DNA of 50,439 nucleotides. It comes from Legionella sp. Lineage in GTDB: Bacteria > Pseudomonadota > Gammaproteobacteria > Legionellales > Legionellaceae. The stretch spans positions 1 through 50,439 of the forward strand of contig PEQM01000010.1 of assembly GCA_002786205.1 (NCBI GenBank), read 5' to 3'. The notes below the pieces were generated by a model, which saw only the letters and a list, made by a program, of their open reading frames with translations, did not search any database and was not told the origin of the DNA. The translations under genes and the position numbers were made by a program. Shown here one piece after another: positions 29,551 to 35,542 of this stretch; the first letter of the stretch is position 1; every line of letters begins with the position of its first letter.

Positions 29551-30402
29551 TCAATATTTTAATTTATCCATGATAAAAAATTCCAAAGATTCAATCGCTG
29601 TATTTTTATTTTCTTTCTTTATTAAAGAGATATGTACGTCTTTTAAAGAGGGGAGAAAAAACTCATCCAGCCTATCGAGATAAGTAGGGATCATACTACG
29701 CTGTATTGCCGTAATTCCAAGACCTGCACGTACTGCTGCCATTTTACCTGCATAACTAGGGCTACTAAATGCCAGGCGCCATTTTAGCTGATGTTGATTG
29801 AGTGACTCAATGACATTGCCTCGGTAAACGCAAGGCGTGGGTGACAGAATGAGTGGAATTATTGCCTTGTCATGAAGTGTTGGTAGCAGTTCTTTTTTAC
29901 CAACCCATTCAACAGGCTCATTCCATACATTTACCCCTTCGGAAAGTTGATTTTTTTCATTTGTTTTTATCAAAATCAAATCAAATTCATCCTGGTTGAA
30001 CCGCTTGATTAAATTCAAGGTTAAGTCACATTCCACATTGAGCATGACCCTGGGATGGAGCCTTGAAAATTCAACCAAGACATCTGAAAGCATCATCGAT
30101 GCAAAATCTTCGGGAAGACCAAAACGAAGTTCTCCTTGCAGCTCTGGTGTTTTAAACCGATCAAGTGACTCGCGATGCAATTCATAAATTCGTTTGGCAT
30201 AGCTTAAAAAAAGCTCTCCATCGGGTGTTAAAGCCAAGTCTCGTCCACGAACAATTAATTGTTTTTCAACTAAATTTTCTAGTTTAGCGATTTGCTGGCT
30301 GATGGCTGATTGTGTGCGACCGACACGTGATGCGGCTTTAGTAAAACTTTGTGTTTCCGCCACGGCTAAAAAGCACTGTAAGGCTATTGTATCTAGTGAC
30401 AT
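29551..30402 (-). CDS. LysR-type transcriptional regulator
   Basis: This is a 283-residue LysR protein. The winged helix-turn-helix spans residues 4-63: CFLAVAETQSFTKAASRVGRTQSAISQQIAKLE. The effector domain follows, with ELRFGLPEDFA and VRAGLGITAIQRSM. Its divergent arrangement with the DAB operon, 88 nt apart, is the classical LysR layout and suggests it controls that operon and itself. In autotrophs related regulators (CbbR, CcmR) control carbon-concentrating genes, but the sequence alone does not give the ligand. TSD: none; no unusual start. Confidence 0.9.
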   Translation of the reverse strand: MSLDTIALQCFLAVAETQSFTKAASRVGRTQSAISQQIAKLENLVEKQLIVRGRDLALTPDGELFLSYAKRIYELHRESLDRFKTPELQGELRFGLPEDFASMMLSDVLVEFSRLHPRVMLNVECDLTLNLIKRFNQDEFDLILIKTNEKNQLSEGVNVWNEPVEWVGKKELLPTLHDKAIIPLILSPTPCVYRGNVIESLNQHQLKWRLAFSSPSYAGKMAAVRAGLGITAIQRSMIPTYLDRLDEFFLPSLKDVHISLIKKENKNTAIESLEFFIMDKLKY

Positions 30403-30490
30403 TAGAATTCCTAATGGTAAATATAAATATTTTTAATTTCACTTATATCAGTATATCTAATATATTTTTATTGTAGCAAAACAATTTCTA
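30403..30490. promoter_or_regulatory. Divergent control region of LysR gene and DAB operon
   Basis: This 88-nt AT-rich gap separates the two divergent genes. It must hold both promoters and any LysR site. Several overlapping AT-rich dyads such as TAAATATAAATATTTTTA are visible, but I cannot single out one T-N11-A operator. AGCAAAACAATTT precedes the dabB start and has no clear Shine-Dalgarno. Confidence 0.45.
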
Positions 30491-32020
30491 ATGGGGAATG
30501 ATGTGAATCAAATAGTTCTATTTTTTTTATGTGGCATGCTGGTCTGTCCAGTCAGTTCGCTGGTCTTGAATTTTGTTTTAGCTTCTCGGCCAATGATGGC
30601 AGCGCGCTGGGCGGGTTATAGTATTGGATTAGGATTCTTGATGGGGGTGGGATTACTTTCTTATTTGTCTTTAGCGCAGGATTCTACAATTTACTGGTTA
30701 ATAAACCTTAATACACTGAACCTGTTATTATGCAACCTGGTGTTATTAGTAAGTTTTGTTGTGCATCGTTTTTCATTAAGGTACATGCATGGAGACAGGC
30801 TCTACAGACGCTTTTTTCTTCTTTTAGCCATGCTAACCCTAACCGCCACGCTTATGGTTCTTGCGGATAATTTATTTTTATTTTGGGGTGTTTGGTCTTT
30901 GTCTAATGTATTTCTTGTGTTGTTGATGATGCATAAGAAAAAATGGGCGGCTTCTAAGAACGCAGGTCTTTTAGCCTTTCAGACCTTGTCGATAGGAAGT
31001 GTGTGTTTGTTAATCGCTTTCATTATGTTAACTGTCACCTACTCAAGCAGTTCTATTTTGACCCTGACTCAGCAAGCCAAGCCTGGCAACTTGTCTTTAC
31101 TTGCATTTGCAATGGGTTTCATCTTGCTTGCTGCATTGGCGCAATCTGGATTGTTTCCTTTTCATCGATGGCTTATCAGCTCTTTGAATTCGCCTACTCC
31201 AGTCTCCGCTTTGATGCATGCAGGGCTGGTTAATGGTGGAGGAATTCTTATTGTCAAATTTGCACCATTAATGAGGTGTTATCCAGAGTTATTAACTTTA
31301 TTGTTCGTAGTGGGTTCTATCTCGGCATTACTGGGTACGGTCTGGAAGTTAATGCAGCATGACATTAAGAGAATGTTGGCCTGTTCTACCATGGCACAAA
31401 TGGGCTTTATGATGATGCAATGTGGCGTGGGTTTATTTTCTGCGGCCATAGCGCATCTGTGTTGGCATGGACTTTTTAAGGCTTATCTTTTTTTAAGTTC
31501 GGGCTCTGCGGTGCAACAAAAAAAAGCAGACACTGGTTCTTTAAAAGCTTCTCCAATGCTGCTCATTATCTCTCTTGCCGGTGGTGTAGTGGCGATGATT
31601 TCATTTGCATTCGTAACGAACAAGTCAATTTCGGTGTATGAGGCAAGTGGCTTTGTTCTTTTTTTTGCTTTTATTGCTGGCGCACAACTGATGCTGACCT
31701 GGATTCGTGCTCAGCAGACGGTATTAAGTATCGTCTCTGGTGTTGTTCTTGCTCTGCTTTCAGGGCTTATGTATGGCGCAAGTATTCAATTGATTCAGTG
31801 GTTAATTCCAAGTGTAGCAACATCAGAAGCGCTTCATTTATCAATAATACATTGGGTAATAATGGCTTTTTTTGGTGCCTTGTGGGTTGGGTTTAATCTA
31901 GGCGGATATCAAGCAATAAGCCAATCAAAGCTGGGCTGCTGGCTTTATGTGACCTTGTTCAACTCAGGCCAGCCTGCCAGAAAAACGGTGACTGCGTTAC
32001 GAAACGATTACAACTGCTAA
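30491..32020 (+). CDS. dabB: DabB: NuoL/antiporter-like subunit of inorganic carbon pump
   Basis: This 509-residue polytopic membrane protein belongs to the proton-translocating NuoL/MrpA antiporter family. The diagnostic stretch is AQSGLFPFHRWLISSLNSPTPVSALMHAGLVNGGGILIVKF, with the key Lys/His region, followed by GTVWKLMQHDIKRMLACSTMAQMGFM. It shows about 13 membrane segments. In DAB systems (DabA plus DabB) it is thought to use the proton gradient to power DabA. The ATG at 30491 lacks a ribosome binding site; the GTG at 30503, with GGGGA just upstream, is an alternative start. It is the first gene of the operon, 18 nt before dabA. Confidence 0.88.
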   Translation: MGNDVNQIVLFFLCGMLVCPVSSLVLNFVLASRPMMAARWAGYSIGLGFLMGVGLLSYLSLAQDSTIYWLINLNTLNLLLCNLVLLVSFVVHRFSLRYMHGDRLYRRFFLLLAMLTLTATLMVLADNLFLFWGVWSLSNVFLVLLMMHKKKWAASKNAGLLAFQTLSIGSVCLLIAFIMLTVTYSSSSILTLTQQAKPGNLSLLAFAMGFILLAALAQSGLFPFHRWLISSLNSPTPVSALMHAGLVNGGGILIVKFAPLMRCYPELLTLLFVVGSISALLGTVWKLMQHDIKRMLACSTMAQMGFMMMQCGVGLFSAAIAHLCWHGLFKAYLFLSSGSAVQQKKADTGSLKASPMLLIISLAGGVVAMISFAFVTNKSISVYEASGFVLFFAFIAGAQLMLTWIRAQQTVLSIVSGVVLALLSGLMYGASIQLIQWLIPSVATSEALHLSIIHWVIMAFFGALWVGFNLGGYQAISQSKLGCWLYVTLFNSGQPARKTVTALRNDYNC

Positions 32021-32038
32021 ACGTATTGAGGAGTATTT

Positions 32039-34324
32039 ATGACTAGTGCAAAACGGTTAACAAAAGATTCAATAAAATCTGGGGTTAAAAATGAAGGCAA
32101 GACCTGTCATGCTGGAAAAAGAAAAGATCTTGAATTACACGCCTTAGTGCATAATGCTGCCAAATGCATCGCCCCGGTGTGGCCACTTGAAACGTTTATT
32201 GCCTGTAATCCATTACAAGGGCTTGAAGCGCAAGCTTTTGAAGAGGCATTAGTTCATGGTGGTTTAAGGCGCATCGCCGCTAGGGATAGCCATGCACTTG
32301 AGGCGGTTAATCGGCAAATGATTAAATGGTGTGGTGGTTTTTTTGATGTAGGGCAAAGCAGTATTGCGATGCCTTATCGTGAACTGGGCTTTTATTATGG
32401 ATTTTTGAAATTAGCAGTTTTTGATAAGCAACTACATCATAATAAAAGAGCAGTAAAAAACTTTTTGCAGCAATTGCCTGACTCAGCAGAAGAAGCCATT
32501 AAAATTTGCTTGCAAAGACTTCATGTTGCAAGAGGACAAGAAGAAGCGTTTTTTGCTCAGACACTTGCTTATTTACCCGGCTGGGCAGGTTTTGTGAAAT
32601 GGAAAACAGACTGGCAGAATGCCAAAAAAGCAGAAAAAGTAAAAGTAACACTTATTGATTTTTTGGCAGTGCGCTTGGTGCTTACCTGCATTCTTTGGCC
32701 TGATGCATTTGGAGAACAACAAAGCAGCAACGACAGCTCTTTTGTTAACAAAGTATTGGTGCAATTAAAAAGCAACGAGGATACCTATCGACAAAAGTTG
32801 TTAAGTCTGCTTTTACCCGAGGCTAAAAAAGAAGTTGTGCCACTTTCTCGCAGGAATGCGCAATTGGTTTTTTGTATTGATGTGCGCTCAGAACCTTTTC
32901 GTCGCGCTATCGAGTCTTTAGGTCATTATGAAACTTTTGGTTTTGCCGGATTTTTTGGTCTTCCGGTGCGTATTAATGAGTTTGATACCAATAAAGACAA
33001 AGAATGCTGTCCTGTCTTATTAAAACCAAAATACGTTGTTAAAGAAACACCAGTTGTTGCTAATAAAGATGATTTTGAACGTTATCAGCGAGGTAAAAAG
33101 CTGATAAACAGCTGCAAAAATCTCTATACGCAACTTAAAAACAATGTATCGACACCCTTTGCTCTGGTTGAATCCTTAGGTCTTTGGTGCGGCCTGAGCA
33201 TGACTCTAAAATCTTTATCGCCTGAATTAAGTAGCCATTCAGGATCTGCATTTAAGCGCTGGTTAAAACCAGTACTTCCGACCAAGGTCGCATATGAGTT
33301 GTGTGAAACTGATGCAGAACAAGGCTTGTCTTTACAAGAGCAAATTAACTATGCCGAGACGGTCTTGCGTCTTATGGGGCTTACTGCTGATTTTGCAAAA
33401 CTCATTATTCTTTGTGGGCACGGCAGTACTACTGAAAATAATCCGTATGCTTCAGCTTTGGATTGCGGTGCTTGTGGTGGAAACCATGGGGGTATTAATG
33501 CCAGATTATTAGCCTCTATTCTTAACAAGCATGAAGTTCGTCAAGCTTTGGAAGAGTCAGGCATGCACATCCCCTTTGATACAGTATTTTATGGTGCATT
33601 GCATAATACTACTACTGACCACGTTGAACTCTACGATGAAGATGTAGCAAAACCGGTTTATCCAGAGCTGTTAAATCAGCTGCAAAACGATTTAACAGCG
33701 GCGCAGCTTCTAACCAATCAAGAGCGCGGCATTAAATTGCAAAGCACTAACGCTCATAAAGACCTTATCCGACGAAGCCTGGATTGGTCTGAAACACGAC
33801 CGGAATGGGGCTTGGCACGAAATGCTGCCTTCATTGTGGCACCTAGGTCTCTCACAAAAAATATTCCTCTTGATGGGCGTTGTTTCTTACATTCCTATTG
33901 CTTCGAACAAGACCATGATGGGGCACTGCTTGAGACGATTTTGACCGCACCCATGGTCGTGGCTGAATGGATAAATACTCAGTATTTATTTTCGACTCTG
34001 GATAATGTTGCTTTTGGCAGCGGGAGTAAAGTGACCCACAATGTAGTTGGGACTATTGGGGTGATGCAAGGTAATGGAAGTGATTTGATGCATGGGCTTC
34101 CCCTGCAATCGGTCATGAGCTCCGATGAGCATGCCTATCATGAACCACAGCGATTATTGACGGTTGTTTATGCACCTAAAGAAAAGGTTTCTCAACTGAT
34201 TGAAAAGCATGCTGTCTTAAAAACTTTATTTTTTAATCAATGGGTTCACTTGGTTGTTATCGATCCCATTAACCTATGTTGTTATCAGTTAAGCAAATCT
34301 GGTGAGTGGAATTTAGTAGAATAA
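32039..34324 (+). CDS. dabA: DabA: beta-carbonic-anhydrase-like subunit of inorganic carbon pump (DUF2309)
   Basis: DabA (UPF0753/DUF2309) works with DabB at the inner membrane, hydrating CO2 one way to trap bicarbonate in the cytosol. The 761-residue sequence starts its domain with APVWPLETFIACNPLQGLE. The carbonic-anhydrase-like site is complete: Cys279 and Asp281 in VFCIDVRSEPFRR, His461 in CGHGSTTENNPYAS and Cys476 in DCGACGGNHGG. The spacing (C-x-D, then H and C 15 apart) matches the Halothiobacillus enzyme (C351, D353, H524, C539). Near the C-terminus HDGALLETILTAPMVVAEWI, MQGNGSDLMHGLPLQSV and RLLTVVYAP complete the family pattern. It is expected to be active. GAGG lies 11 nt before the ATG. 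Confidence 0.94.
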   Translation: MTSAKRLTKDSIKSGVKNEGKTCHAGKRKDLELHALVHNAAKCIAPVWPLETFIACNPLQGLEAQAFEEALVHGGLRRIAARDSHALEAVNRQMIKWCGGFFDVGQSSIAMPYRELGFYYGFLKLAVFDKQLHHNKRAVKNFLQQLPDSAEEAIKICLQRLHVARGQEEAFFAQTLAYLPGWAGFVKWKTDWQNAKKAEKVKVTLIDFLAVRLVLTCILWPDAFGEQQSSNDSSFVNKVLVQLKSNEDTYRQKLLSLLLPEAKKEVVPLSRRNAQLVFCIDVRSEPFRRAIESLGHYETFGFAGFFGLPVRINEFDTNKDKECCPVLLKPKYVVKETPVVANKDDFERYQRGKKLINSCKNLYTQLKNNVSTPFALVESLGLWCGLSMTLKSLSPELSSHSGSAFKRWLKPVLPTKVAYELCETDAEQGLSLQEQINYAETVLRLMGLTADFAKLIILCGHGSTTENNPYASALDCGACGGNHGGINARLLASILNKHEVRQALEESGMHIPFDTVFYGALHNTTTDHVELYDEDVAKPVYPELLNQLQNDLTAAQLLTNQERGIKLQSTNAHKDLIRRSLDWSETRPEWGLARNAAFIVAPRSLTKNIPLDGRCFLHSYCFEQDHDGALLETILTAPMVVAEWINTQYLFSTLDNVAFGSGSKVTHNVVGTIGVMQGNGSDLMHGLPLQSVMSSDEHAYHEPQRLLTVVYAPKEKVSQLIEKHAVLKTLFFNQWVHLVVIDPINLCCYQLSKSGEWNLVE

Positions 34325-34340
34325 CAGTGAGGAGAAAAAA

Positions 34341-34706
34341 ATGAATGTGGTTAAAGTTCAAGAGCGAAAAGATGTTGGGATTAATTTACATCCAATGAAA
34401 AAAATTGAGATCATTGTTGCAGGAGAACATGAGCATCTGATTACATCGATGATGGATGAGGCATCAGTGACAGGATATACCTTGATACGAAACGTTTCTG
34501 GAAAAGGGCATCATGGCTTTCATGAAGGAAAAATGATGTTTAATGACAAAGCTTCATTGGTATTATTTATCGCAGTGGCACCTGAGGAAGTGATTGTAAC
34601 CTTAGCTTTGGGCATGAAAATGCTGTTTCAGAATGAGTCCGGAGTTATGTTTGTTTCTGATGTGTCGGTGGCAAGGCTTGATTATTTTCACATGATGAAT
34701 ACTTAA
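34341..34706 (+). CDS. PII-like regulatory protein of the DAB operon
   Basis: This 121-residue protein has a PII (GlnB)-like ferredoxin fold: strand KKIEIIVAGEHEHLITSMM, an exposed T-loop region with GKGHHGFHEGKMMFND, then LVLFIAVAPEEVIVTLALGM. It lacks the classical Tyr51 uridylylation loop, so it belongs with PII-like proteins such as those found next to bicarbonate transporters and carboxysomes. Three histidines in the loop could bind metal. A strong ribosome binding site (GAGGAG) precedes ATG 34341. An internal Met19 marks the usual start of the fold, so there is an N-terminal extension of 18 residues. It lies 16 nt after dabA and 2 nt before the next gene. Confidence 0.82.
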   Translation: MNVVKVQERKDVGINLHPMKKIEIIVAGEHEHLITSMMDEASVTGYTLIRNVSGKGHHGFHEGKMMFNDKASLVLFIAVAPEEVIVTLALGMKMLFQNESGVMFVSDVSVARLDYFHMMNT

Positions 34707-34708
34707 TC

Positions 34709-35542
34709 ATGTACTATAAAAATCAAAATGTCTTATTAGCCTCTAAACATGAAAAAGAGCAAGCAATGGCTAAACCTTTTCTGGACAGATTATCGTGCAC
34801 CTTGCGGGTGCGCGAGTTTGATACGGATCAGTTTGGTACATTTACTGGAGAGATTGCCCGAACTTTGAGTCCTTATGAAACCTGTCTTTTAAAGGCTAAA
34901 ACGGCAGCAAAACGCTATCATTATGACCTTGCTGTTGCCTCTGAAGGAAGTTTTGGTCCTCATCCTGCTTTTCCTTTTGTACCTGGTGCGCATGAGTTAA
35001 TGGTGTTTATTGATAGAAGGCATGATTGGATTATAGCCGAGCAGTGTATCAGTCAGAAAACGAATTATGCGATGTTGACGGTCAACAAAAATACAAAACT
35101 GGATGATTTTTTGACTCAAGTTCACTTTCCTTCTCATGCGCTTATTGTGCAATTGACCTCTAATAGCCATGTGTTGGCGAAGGGCGTCCATGATTTGGAT
35201 GCATTGACTTATTACCTTAAGCTTGGCTTTAAAACTGACAAAGAGCTTCTTTTAACAACCGACATGCGGGCCATGATGAATCCCACTCGAATGGCGGTAA
35301 TCGGTGAGTTGGCAGATAAATTAACGCAACGCATTAGCCGTCTTTGTATTCAATGTGAACGGCCAGGTTTTGGGTTTAAAACGACTAGAGGTGCATTAGC
35401 CTGTGCGTTGTGTGGTGCTCCTACCTCCTTTTACGAGGAAGAGGTTTGGGGGTGCATCGGTTGTGAACATCAAGAATACAAAAAGCGACAAGACGGTTTG
35501 TTAACCGCCGACCCTACCTATTGTGATAATTGTAATCCTTAG
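34709..35542 (+). CDS. DUF6671-like protein with C-terminal zinc ribbon
   Basis: This 277-residue protein is the last gene of the DAB operon, 2 nt after the PII-like gene. The N-terminal part (about 1-190) reads NQNVLLASKHEKEQAMAKPF, then RTLSPYETCLLKAKTAAK, YDLAVASEGSFGPHP and VPGAHELMVFIDRR. The C-terminal part (about 215-277) has CIQCERPGFG, ACALCGAPTSF, WGCIGCEHQEY and YCDNCNP: four CxxC knuckles, enough for two zinc ribbons. I place it in DUF6671 from memory. No signal peptide is present, so it is cytosolic. Its job is unknown. Position suggests a role with DabA/B, perhaps metal delivery to the DabA site, but that is speculation. Confidence 0.75.
   Translation: MYYKNQNVLLASKHEKEQAMAKPFLDRLSCTLRVREFDTDQFGTFTGEIARTLSPYETCLLKAKTAAKRYHYDLAVASEGSFGPHPAFPFVPGAHELMVFIDRRHDWIIAEQCISQKTNYAMLTVNKNTKLDDFLTQVHFPSHALIVQLTSNSHVLAKGVHDLDALTYYLKLGFKTDKELLLTTDMRAMMNPTRMAVIGELADKLTQRISRLCIQCERPGFGFKTTRGALACALCGAPTSFYEEEVWGCIGCEHQEYKKRQDGLLTADPTYCDNCNP

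What the first reader, a model, noticed from the sequence alone, without database searches (positions are those of the whole stretch)
30403..35542. Complete DAB-type inorganic carbon pump operon in a heterotrophic, Legionella-like genome
DabB and DabA are adjacent and the DabA metal site (C279, D281, H461, C476) has the same spacing as the characterised Halothiobacillus protein. Two more genes are tightly joined (16 and 2 nt), with a divergent LysR gene upstream. DAB pumps feed carbon fixation in autotrophs but are also found in some heterotrophs, where they may supply bicarbonate to carboxylases. No RuBisCO or carboxysome gene is in the window. Inside an amoeba or macrophage vacuole this could decide growth at low CO2.
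Basis: partly seen in the sequence, partly recalled or inferred. Interest (0 to 1): 0.85.

Follow-up and report, generated by a model that had tools for sequence, protein, structure and literature searches.

The report
Bicarbonate-pump operon with unexplained partner gene
This Legionella-genus genome carries a known type of bicarbonate-making pump next to a gene of unknown function that, in a number of other bacteria, sits beside unrelated carbon-dioxide supply systems and enzymes that need carbon dioxide or bicarbonate, hinting at what such pumps do in bacteria that do not fix carbon.

Summary
Confirmed: at 30491-35542 lies an intact operon dabB-dabA-PII-like-DUF6671 with a divergent lysR. 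DabA keeps 20 of 21 mapped DabA2 residues (metal site, Asp-Arg dyad, 'finger' Glu); DabB keeps 7 of 7 proton-path residues but not the ion-pair Lys. The pump itself is ordinary: DAB in Legionella is in print (PMC8552792) and 66 of 143 Legionellaceae genomes have DabA. It does not replace a missing carbonic anhydrase: 137 of 143 have beta-CA, the own genome included.

The parts
29551..30402 (-). LysR-family regulator, divergent from the operon
   Evidence: PF00126 and PF03466; a divergent lysR is seen in 21 of 28 Legionella-labelled loci, several of the others being cut by contig ends
30403..30490 (.). 88-bp divergent intergenic region, strongly conserved in the window and 10 relatives; likely shared promoter/operator
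   Evidence: alignment A2, 11 sequences chosen from the Legionella-labelled loci; promoter-like matches in the area are no more than chance
30491..32020 (+). dabB, NuoL-like proton-conducting subunit, 509 aa
   Evidence: PF00361 and PF00662; best solved relative DabB2 9rd0_B, E 2.8e-36; 7 of 7 proton-path residues identical, K235 position is Q218
32039..34324 (+). dabA, beta-CA-like cytoplasmic subunit, 761 aa
   Evidence: PF10070 790 bits; 9rd0_A E 6.2e-112; 20 of 21 DabA2 functional residues identical
32873..32887 (+). codons of C279, D281, R283: zinc ligand and Asp-Arg dyad
   Evidence: compared with PMC13144422
33170..33172 (+). codon of E378, equivalent of the DabA2 'finger' residue E444
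   Evidence: compared with PMC13144422
33419..33466 (+). codons of H461 to C476: zinc ligands at both ends
34341..34706 (+). PII-like signal protein, 121 aa; closest solved relatives 5d4n/5d4l (recalled to be the bicarbonate-responsive CPII of Thiomonas)
   Evidence: PF00543 73 bits; phmmer E 5.9e-28 and 7.6e-28, gap-free over about 100 residues
34709..35542 (+). DUF6671 protein, 277 aa: ITPase/YjjX-like domain plus C-terminal Cys pairs (zinc-ribbon-like)

Best explanation
The region is a LysR-linked DAB operon. DabB conducts protons and drives DabA, a buried beta-CA-like zinc site, to hydrate CO2 one way and so build up cytoplasmic bicarbonate. The PII-like protein probably reads bicarbonate and adenine-nucleotide status and tunes the pump. 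DUF6671 is a nucleotide-pyrophosphatase-fold (YjjX/ITPase-like) protein with zinc-ribbon-like Cys pairs; it is a shared accessory of several unrelated inorganic-carbon systems (DAB, SbtA, beta-CA) and most likely acts on a nucleotide or nucleotide-bound ligand that couples carbon status to the PII-like protein or to the carbon-using enzymes. In this heterotroph the bicarbonate does not feed carbon fixation but housekeeping reactions that need HCO3- or CO2: t6A tRNA modification (TsaC), anaplerotic carboxylation, and enzymes with a carbamylated lysine. Shown: gene content, order, conserved residues, co-localisation, predicted fold. Inferred: bicarbonate accumulation here, regulation by the PII-like protein and LysR, the activity of DUF6671, and the beneficiary enzymes.
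For: DabA and DabB residues (against PMC13144422 sections read). RuBisCO not found. In Legionellaceae DUF6671 and DabA co-occur (55 both, 11 DabA only, 5 DUF6671 only, 72 neither; Fisher p 3e-22, not corrected for kinship) and 56 of 62 DUF6671 matches lie 274-717 nt downstream of DabA on the same strand. DUF6671 is next to SbtA in G292, G901, G619 and G1114 (PF05982 355-367 bits) and on three Arthrobacter plasmids; it directly follows a beta-CA gene in G034, a Legionellaceae genome without a DabA match. In 27 genome neighbourhoods outside Legionellaceae: DabA 14, SbtA 4, TsaC 7, PyrC 4, IlvD 4, CysD 4, at least one in 21 (phmmer hits of 60 bits or more); 0 of 20 control regions. Family models confirm all 7 TsaC, 4 PyrC, 4 IlvD and 3 of the 4 CysD. 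Clustering without chosen queries gives the same families. TsaC (TIGR00057) follows DUF6671 or DabA in 6 of 28 Legionella-labelled loci, the closest relative L003 included. TsaC uses bicarbonate (PMC11648230, start of abstract).
Against: beta-CA is in 137 of 143 Legionellaceae genomes, and a cytoplasmic CA should dissipate a bicarbonate pool; PMC8552792 says that having both makes little sense (passage). CysD recurs but is not known to need CO2. The PyrC and IlvD copies keep the carbamate Lys, so they are not CO2-independent substitutes. 6 of 27 genome loci show none of the partners, and a divergent DUF6671 group in G281's genus lacks them (6 loci examined). The window has icd, not tsaC, downstream, and 22 of the 28 Legionella-labelled loci show no tsaC in the stretch held. 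DabB lacks the K235 ion-pair residue. The fold is a prediction; the best Foldseek rows are CinA proteins (E 8e-5), YjjX and HAM1 come at 1.5e-3 and 5e-3, and no sequence relative of DUF6671 was found in the PDB.
Confidence: 0.6

Rival explanations
1. Plain DAB operon that replaces carbonic anhydrase as the main inorganic-carbon supply, as MpsAB does in S. aureus; the two extra genes are incidental.
For: DabA and DabB residues are largely intact; MpsAB and CA are interchangeable in staphylococci (PMC8552792 passages; PMC6689103 start of abstract).
Against: beta-CA in 137 of 143 Legionellaceae genomes and 2 matches in the own genome; DabA-positive and DabA-negative genomes hardly differ in it (read off: 64 of 66 and 73 of 77). 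DUF6671 sticks to DabA in 56 of 62 cases and to other carbon systems elsewhere, so it is not incidental.
Confidence: 0.17
2. The islands answer zinc shortage, not CO2 shortage: DabA, CA and PyrC are zinc enzymes, and DUF6671, with its Cys pairs, is a zinc-handling protein.
For: Eight invariant Cys in DUF6671; known zinc-starvation islands hold spare enzyme copies (recalled).
Against: SbtA, TsaC, IlvD and CysD are not zinc proteins (recalled), yet they recur.
Confidence: 0.1
3. DUF6671 is a nucleotide house-cleaning enzyme that serves ATP-consuming neighbours (TsaC and CysD both release pyrophosphate) and has no direct role in carbon supply.
For: YjjX/RdgB/HAM1-like fold; TsaC and CysD next to it.
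Against: Its most frequent partner is DabA (14 of 27 genome loci), and it adjoins SbtA and a beta-CA where neither TsaC nor CysD was found near.
Confidence: 0.15

Closest known systems
DAB2 of Halothiobacillus neapolitanus (DabA2/DabB2; PDB 9rd0; PMC13144422)
   Same: DabA zinc site, Asp-Arg dyad, most tunnel residues and the finger Glu; DabB proton path
   Different: Host has no detectable RuBisCO; DabA is shorter (761 aa; the 9rd0 chain has 870) and Pfam model positions 38-100 are unmatched; the DabB ion-pair Lys is Gln; the operon adds a PII-like gene and DUF6671
MpsAB of Staphylococcus aureus (PMC6689103, PMC8552792)
   Same: DAB-family system in a heterotroph
   Different: S. aureus has no CA (PMC8567241, title and start of abstract); here beta-CA is present. 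Sodium or proton coupling not testable here
CPII-type PII-like protein (PDB 5d4n/5d4l; identity with Thiomonas CPII recalled)
   Same: Gap-free alignment over about 100 residues, E 6e-28
   Different: Sits in a dab operon of a genome without detectable RuBisCO; ligand binding not tested
YjjX / RdgB / HAM1 (ITPase-like) NTP pyrophosphatases
   Different: 12-17% identity in those three matches, extra C-terminal Cys pairs, gene context is carbon supply
SbtA-SbtB bicarbonate transporter with PII partner
   Same: On an Arthrobacter plasmid SbtA, a PII-family gene and DUF6671 lie together, as DAB, PII-like and DUF6671 do here
   Different: Unrelated transporter

Membership tests
DAB/DAC (DabA-DabB) family | DabA domain PF10070 over its cut-off | tested here: met
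   790 bits, cut-off 25
DAB/DAC (DabA-DabB) family | Zn ligands C, H, C and the Asp-Arg dyad | tested here: met
   C279, H461, C476, D281, R283
DAB/DAC (DabA-DabB) family | Adjacent NuoL-like DabB with proton-path residues | tested here: met
   S239, H243, K293, S299, H322, H326, K330 identical, 7 of 7
DAB/DAC (DabA-DabB) family | DabB ion-pair residues (I151, R182, D185, K235 of DabB2) | tested here: inconclusive
   I151 is S136, K235 is Q218, R182 and D185 fall in alignment gaps; Q stands at the K235 position in all 10 Legionella-lineage loci where the motif scan found it, L004-L009, L011 and L013-L015
DAB/DAC (DabA-DabB) family | Energy-dependent bicarbonate accumulation | not testable with these tools
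   needs a transport or complementation assay
Autotrophic CO2-concentrating mechanism | RuBisCO in the genome | tested here: not met
   PF00016 0 of 1 own genome; assembly 87% complete, so a missed gene is possible
DAB as sole DIC supply (MpsAB-like situation) | No carbonic anhydrase in the genome | tested here: not met
   2 PF00484 matches in the own genome; one lies in a frame with a SulP-like region
CPII / PII-like | P-II domain and sequence relation to 5d4n/5d4l | tested here: met
CPII / PII-like | Bicarbonate and nucleotide binding | not testable with these tools
DUF6671 (PF20376) | Score over the gathering cut-off | tested here: met
   181.6 bits, cut-off 23.8
ITPase/YjjX-like NTP pyrophosphatases | Fold | tested here: met
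ITPase/YjjX-like NTP pyrophosphatases | Sequence relation | tested here: inconclusive
   no phmmer match to these in the PDB up to E 10
ITPase/YjjX-like NTP pyrophosphatases | Pyrophosphohydrolase activity | not testable with these tools
   -

The most novel reading that the evidence does not exclude
DUF6671 marks, and probably regulates, a so far unnamed class of low-CO2 survival modules in mostly heterotrophic bacteria: a bicarbonate supply system (DAB, SbtA or beta-CA), often a PII-like sensor, and dedicated copies of bicarbonate- or CO2-dependent housekeeping enzymes (TsaC, PyrC, IlvD, carboxylases), partly plasmid-borne. The Legionella operon is a pared-down example. If so, the modules name the cellular reactions that fail first when CO2 runs short.
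Probability: 0.45. Interest if true: 0.8.

Novelty: new variant of a known kind. Interest (0 to 1): 0.6.

Why it matters
Why heterotrophs keep DAB pumps is open. Several of the genes that travel with the pump and its DUF6671 partner are CO2/HCO3- users (t6A synthase, dihydroorotase, dihydroxy-acid dehydratase, a carboxylase), which gives a concrete, testable list of what the bicarbonate is for. DUF6671, not named in any paper of the held library, would gain a first functional context and a fold.

Tried and rejected
Rejected: DAB replaces a missing CA (137 of 143 genomes have beta-CA; alpha-CA 1 of 143). Rejected: island PyrC/IlvD are CO2-independent replacements (carbamate Lys kept in 9 of 9 IlvD and 7 of 7 PyrC, plasmid copies included). 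Not claimed: a DabA-DUF6671 fusion in L024 (one open frame, but unresolved bases, codon GNN, lie between the two). No useful promoter, terminator or RNA-family signal at the operon. DUF6671 has no phmmer relative in the PDB. Extra copies were tested only for ilvD: a second copy over the family cut-off in 3 of 4 island genomes (G1114, G1151, G618); in G589 only the island copy passes. Not tested for tsaC, pyrC, cysD.

Limits of the counts. The enzyme queries came from the 12 plasmid islands, so the plasmid counts (12 of 12 with a partner) are partly circular; the 27 genome loci are the independent set for PyrC, IlvD, TsaC and CysD, while one SbtA query came from G292, itself one of the 27. The genome draws overlap. 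Dropped before the 27: own genome, G125 and G034 (Legionellaceae); the divergent group of G281's genus (61 of 76 genomes of that order have a match; 6 loci of the group examined; G589's stronger copy was kept); fragments G726 and G1144; below-cut-off G312 and G1117. Two of the 27 are from one genome (G618), two from one genus (G403, G514); some stretches are cut by contig ends. The 20 control regions (19 kb) were placed by hand at an offset, not drawn at random; 16 are from genomes of the 27 and 4 from the dropped group. Besides no partner genes they gave weak LysR hits in 2 and RaiA in 1. In one search I set aside clusters that I took for antisense frames of the same genes; the PyrC cluster there is mixed with such frames, so I use for PyrC.

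Papers: PMC13144422 outline and sections 8-12 read plus passages; PMC8552792 and PMC10880623 passages only; PMC6689103, PMC8567241 and PMC11648230 seen as search listings with the start of the abstract. Not-in-print statements rest on (DUF6671: 0 papers; only 15 of 87 papers listed). The Desmarais 2019 DAB paper is not held; that accessory genes occur in dab operons there is recalled.
Full report
What is there. The window is contig 15 of a 2.10 Mb, 63-contig assembly, 87% complete. The reported genes are present with the stated order and gaps and pass the Pfam cut-offs for LysR, Proton_antipo (DabB), DabA, P-II and DUF6671. The nearest named DabA relatives are a Legionellaceae metagenome genome (80%) and Legionella species such as L. 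anisa (81%), L. waltersii and L. bononiensis (79%); the genome falls in one genus with 44 others of the 143 Legionellaceae genomes searched (read off the handles).

Is it a real DAB? Mapping by the phmmer alignment to DabA2 (9rd0) gives identity at 20 of 21 residues that the 2026 structure paper discusses (the exception is V696, here L), including the zinc ligands C279, H461, C476, the D281-R283 dyad and E378 for the proton-path 'finger' E444. DabB keeps 7 of 7 proton-path residues, but K235 is Q218 and I151 is S136; R182 and D185 are not aligned (PMC13144422 sections). In that paper alanine replacements of the ion-pair residues lower but do not abolish rescue, so the difference need not mean loss of function.

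How common. PF10070 is in 66 of 143 Legionellaceae genomes, 60 of 117 good-quality ones. Beta-CA is in 137 of 143, alpha-CA in 1 of 143, so DAB presence does not track absence of CA. The own genome has two beta-CA matches; one lies in a 774-aa frame that joins a SulP-like region to a CA domain (PF00484 over its cut-off, the NCBIfam SulP and CA models under theirs). RuBisCO large subunit was not found in it.

The fourth gene. In Legionellaceae DUF6671 is in 60 of 143 genomes, and 56 of 62 matches lie 274-717 nt downstream of a DabA on the same strand; the two groups of gaps (16 of 274-383 nt, 40 of 643-717 nt) fit absence or presence of the PII-like gene. Of the six others, one is G034, which has no DabA match and where DUF6671, taken from its conserved start, begins about 10 nt after a beta-CA gene on the same strand. 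In the 56 named loci, DUF6671 is found next to DabA in 29 (28, plus L025), in Legionellaceae, a Parachlamydiaceae genome, Melainabacteria-type cyanobacteria and Spirosoma; 24 of the 28 loci labelled Legionella, Legionellaceae or Legionellales have it.

Outside the family. DUF6671 is rare: 9 of 398 Pseudomonadota genomes (8 over the cut-off, own included), 14 of 385 Alphaproteobacteria, 14 of 369 Gammaproteobacteria (13 over the cut-off, own and another Legionellaceae included); these draws overlap. I read 27 neighbourhoods (phmmer hits of 60 bits or more): DabA in 14, SbtA in 4, TsaC in 7, PyrC in 4, IlvD in 4, CysD in 4, TerC in 2; 21 have at least one of DabA, SbtA, TsaC, PyrC, IlvD, CysD and 6 have none. 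Curated models confirm the calls: SbtA PF05982 in 4 of 4, TsaC by TIGR00057 in 6 and by Pfam Sua5 in the seventh, PyrC TIGR00856 in 4 of 4, IlvD TIGR00110 in 4 of 4, CysD in the 3 of 4 scanned. Twenty 19-kb control regions, 16 of them from the same genomes, have none of these genes; for any of the four enzymes 12 of 27 against 0 of 20, Fisher p 4e-4. Clustering without chosen queries over 42 plasmid and genome loci puts LysR (22 loci), Dab (21), IlvD (9), TsaC (9), TerC (7), SbtA (7) and CysD (6) among the most recurrent families, beside an ABC-ATPase cluster (9) that I take for background. On 12 plasmids the same company appears: DabA 7, SbtA 3, IlvD 5, TerC 5, PyrC 2, CysD 2, TsaC 2; those plasmids supplied the queries, so this is not an independent count.

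Why this points to CO2. TsaC consumes bicarbonate (PMC11648230, start of abstract seen). Dihydroorotase and dihydroxy-acid dehydratase hold a CO2-derived carbamylated lysine (recalled); that lysine is kept in the 7 PyrC and 9 IlvD copies. One locus reads tsaC, DUF6671, biotin carboxylase, and a gene scoring as pyruvate carboxylase B and as oxaloacetate decarboxylase alpha, all on one strand (L151); I take the last two for a two-subunit pyruvate carboxylase. DAB, SbtA and beta-CA are unrelated ways to supply bicarbonate. CysD and TerC are not explained by this; TerC/Alx is alkali-induced in E. coli (recalled), a condition poor in CO2. The theme reaches the Legionella operon itself: in 6 of 28 Legionella-labelled loci a threonylcarbamoyl-AMP synthase follows DUF6671 or DabA, each over the TIGR00057 cut-off, the closest relative L003 among them. 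In the window the place is taken by icd.

Verdict. The pump is a known kind and known in the genus. The association of DUF6671 with three inorganic-carbon systems and with CO2/HCO3--dependent enzymes was not found in the searches of the held literature and is the result worth following.

Noticed in passing
L189 4023-6295, L190 4261-6559, L196 5835-8275: In the three relatives examined for it, DabA is encoded by two overlapping ORFs (roughly residues 11-228 and 231-760), split before the zinc domain; split matches of this kind are listed for seven genomes.
   Followed up: partly
L192 6710-11181 and other about 890-aa DabA frames: Some Legionellaceae carry a second, longer DabA type; the listed ones have no DUF6671 match directly downstream.
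   Followed up: no
L158 3835-7935: DabB and DabA lie in one open frame (about 1335 aa from the start codon) in an alphaproteobacterium, followed by DUF6671.
   Followed up: no
L024 5977-9084: DabA and DUF6671 in one open frame in a Parachlamydiaceae genome; unresolved bases between them leave a fusion unproven.
   Followed up: partly
L161 / L117: DUF6671 directly follows a beta-CA gene in a Legionellaceae genome with no DabA match.
   Followed up: partly
L157, L162-L166: A divergent DUF6671 group in one alphaproteobacterial order (61 of 76 genomes have a match), with none of the queried carbon-system or enzyme neighbours in six loci examined.
   Followed up: partly
L052-L054, L058: CysD near DabA in four loci labelled Nitrospira or Nitrosospira, and TsaC next to DabA in Nitrospira moscoviensis; no DUF6671 was found there.
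   Followed up: no
window 30403-30490: The lysR-dabB intergenic region is highly conserved in the window and 10 relatives, a candidate LysR operator.
   Followed up: partly
window DabB Q218: The ion-pair Lys of DabB2/NuoL is Gln in the window, in 10 of 10 Legionella-lineage loci found by the motif scan, and in L037, labelled Rhodovibrionaceae.
   Followed up: partly
L187 2167-4485: Own genome encodes a SulP-like transporter joined to a beta-carbonic anhydrase domain; PF00484 matches in frames of similar length recur across Legionellaceae, not checked for SulP.
   Followed up: partly
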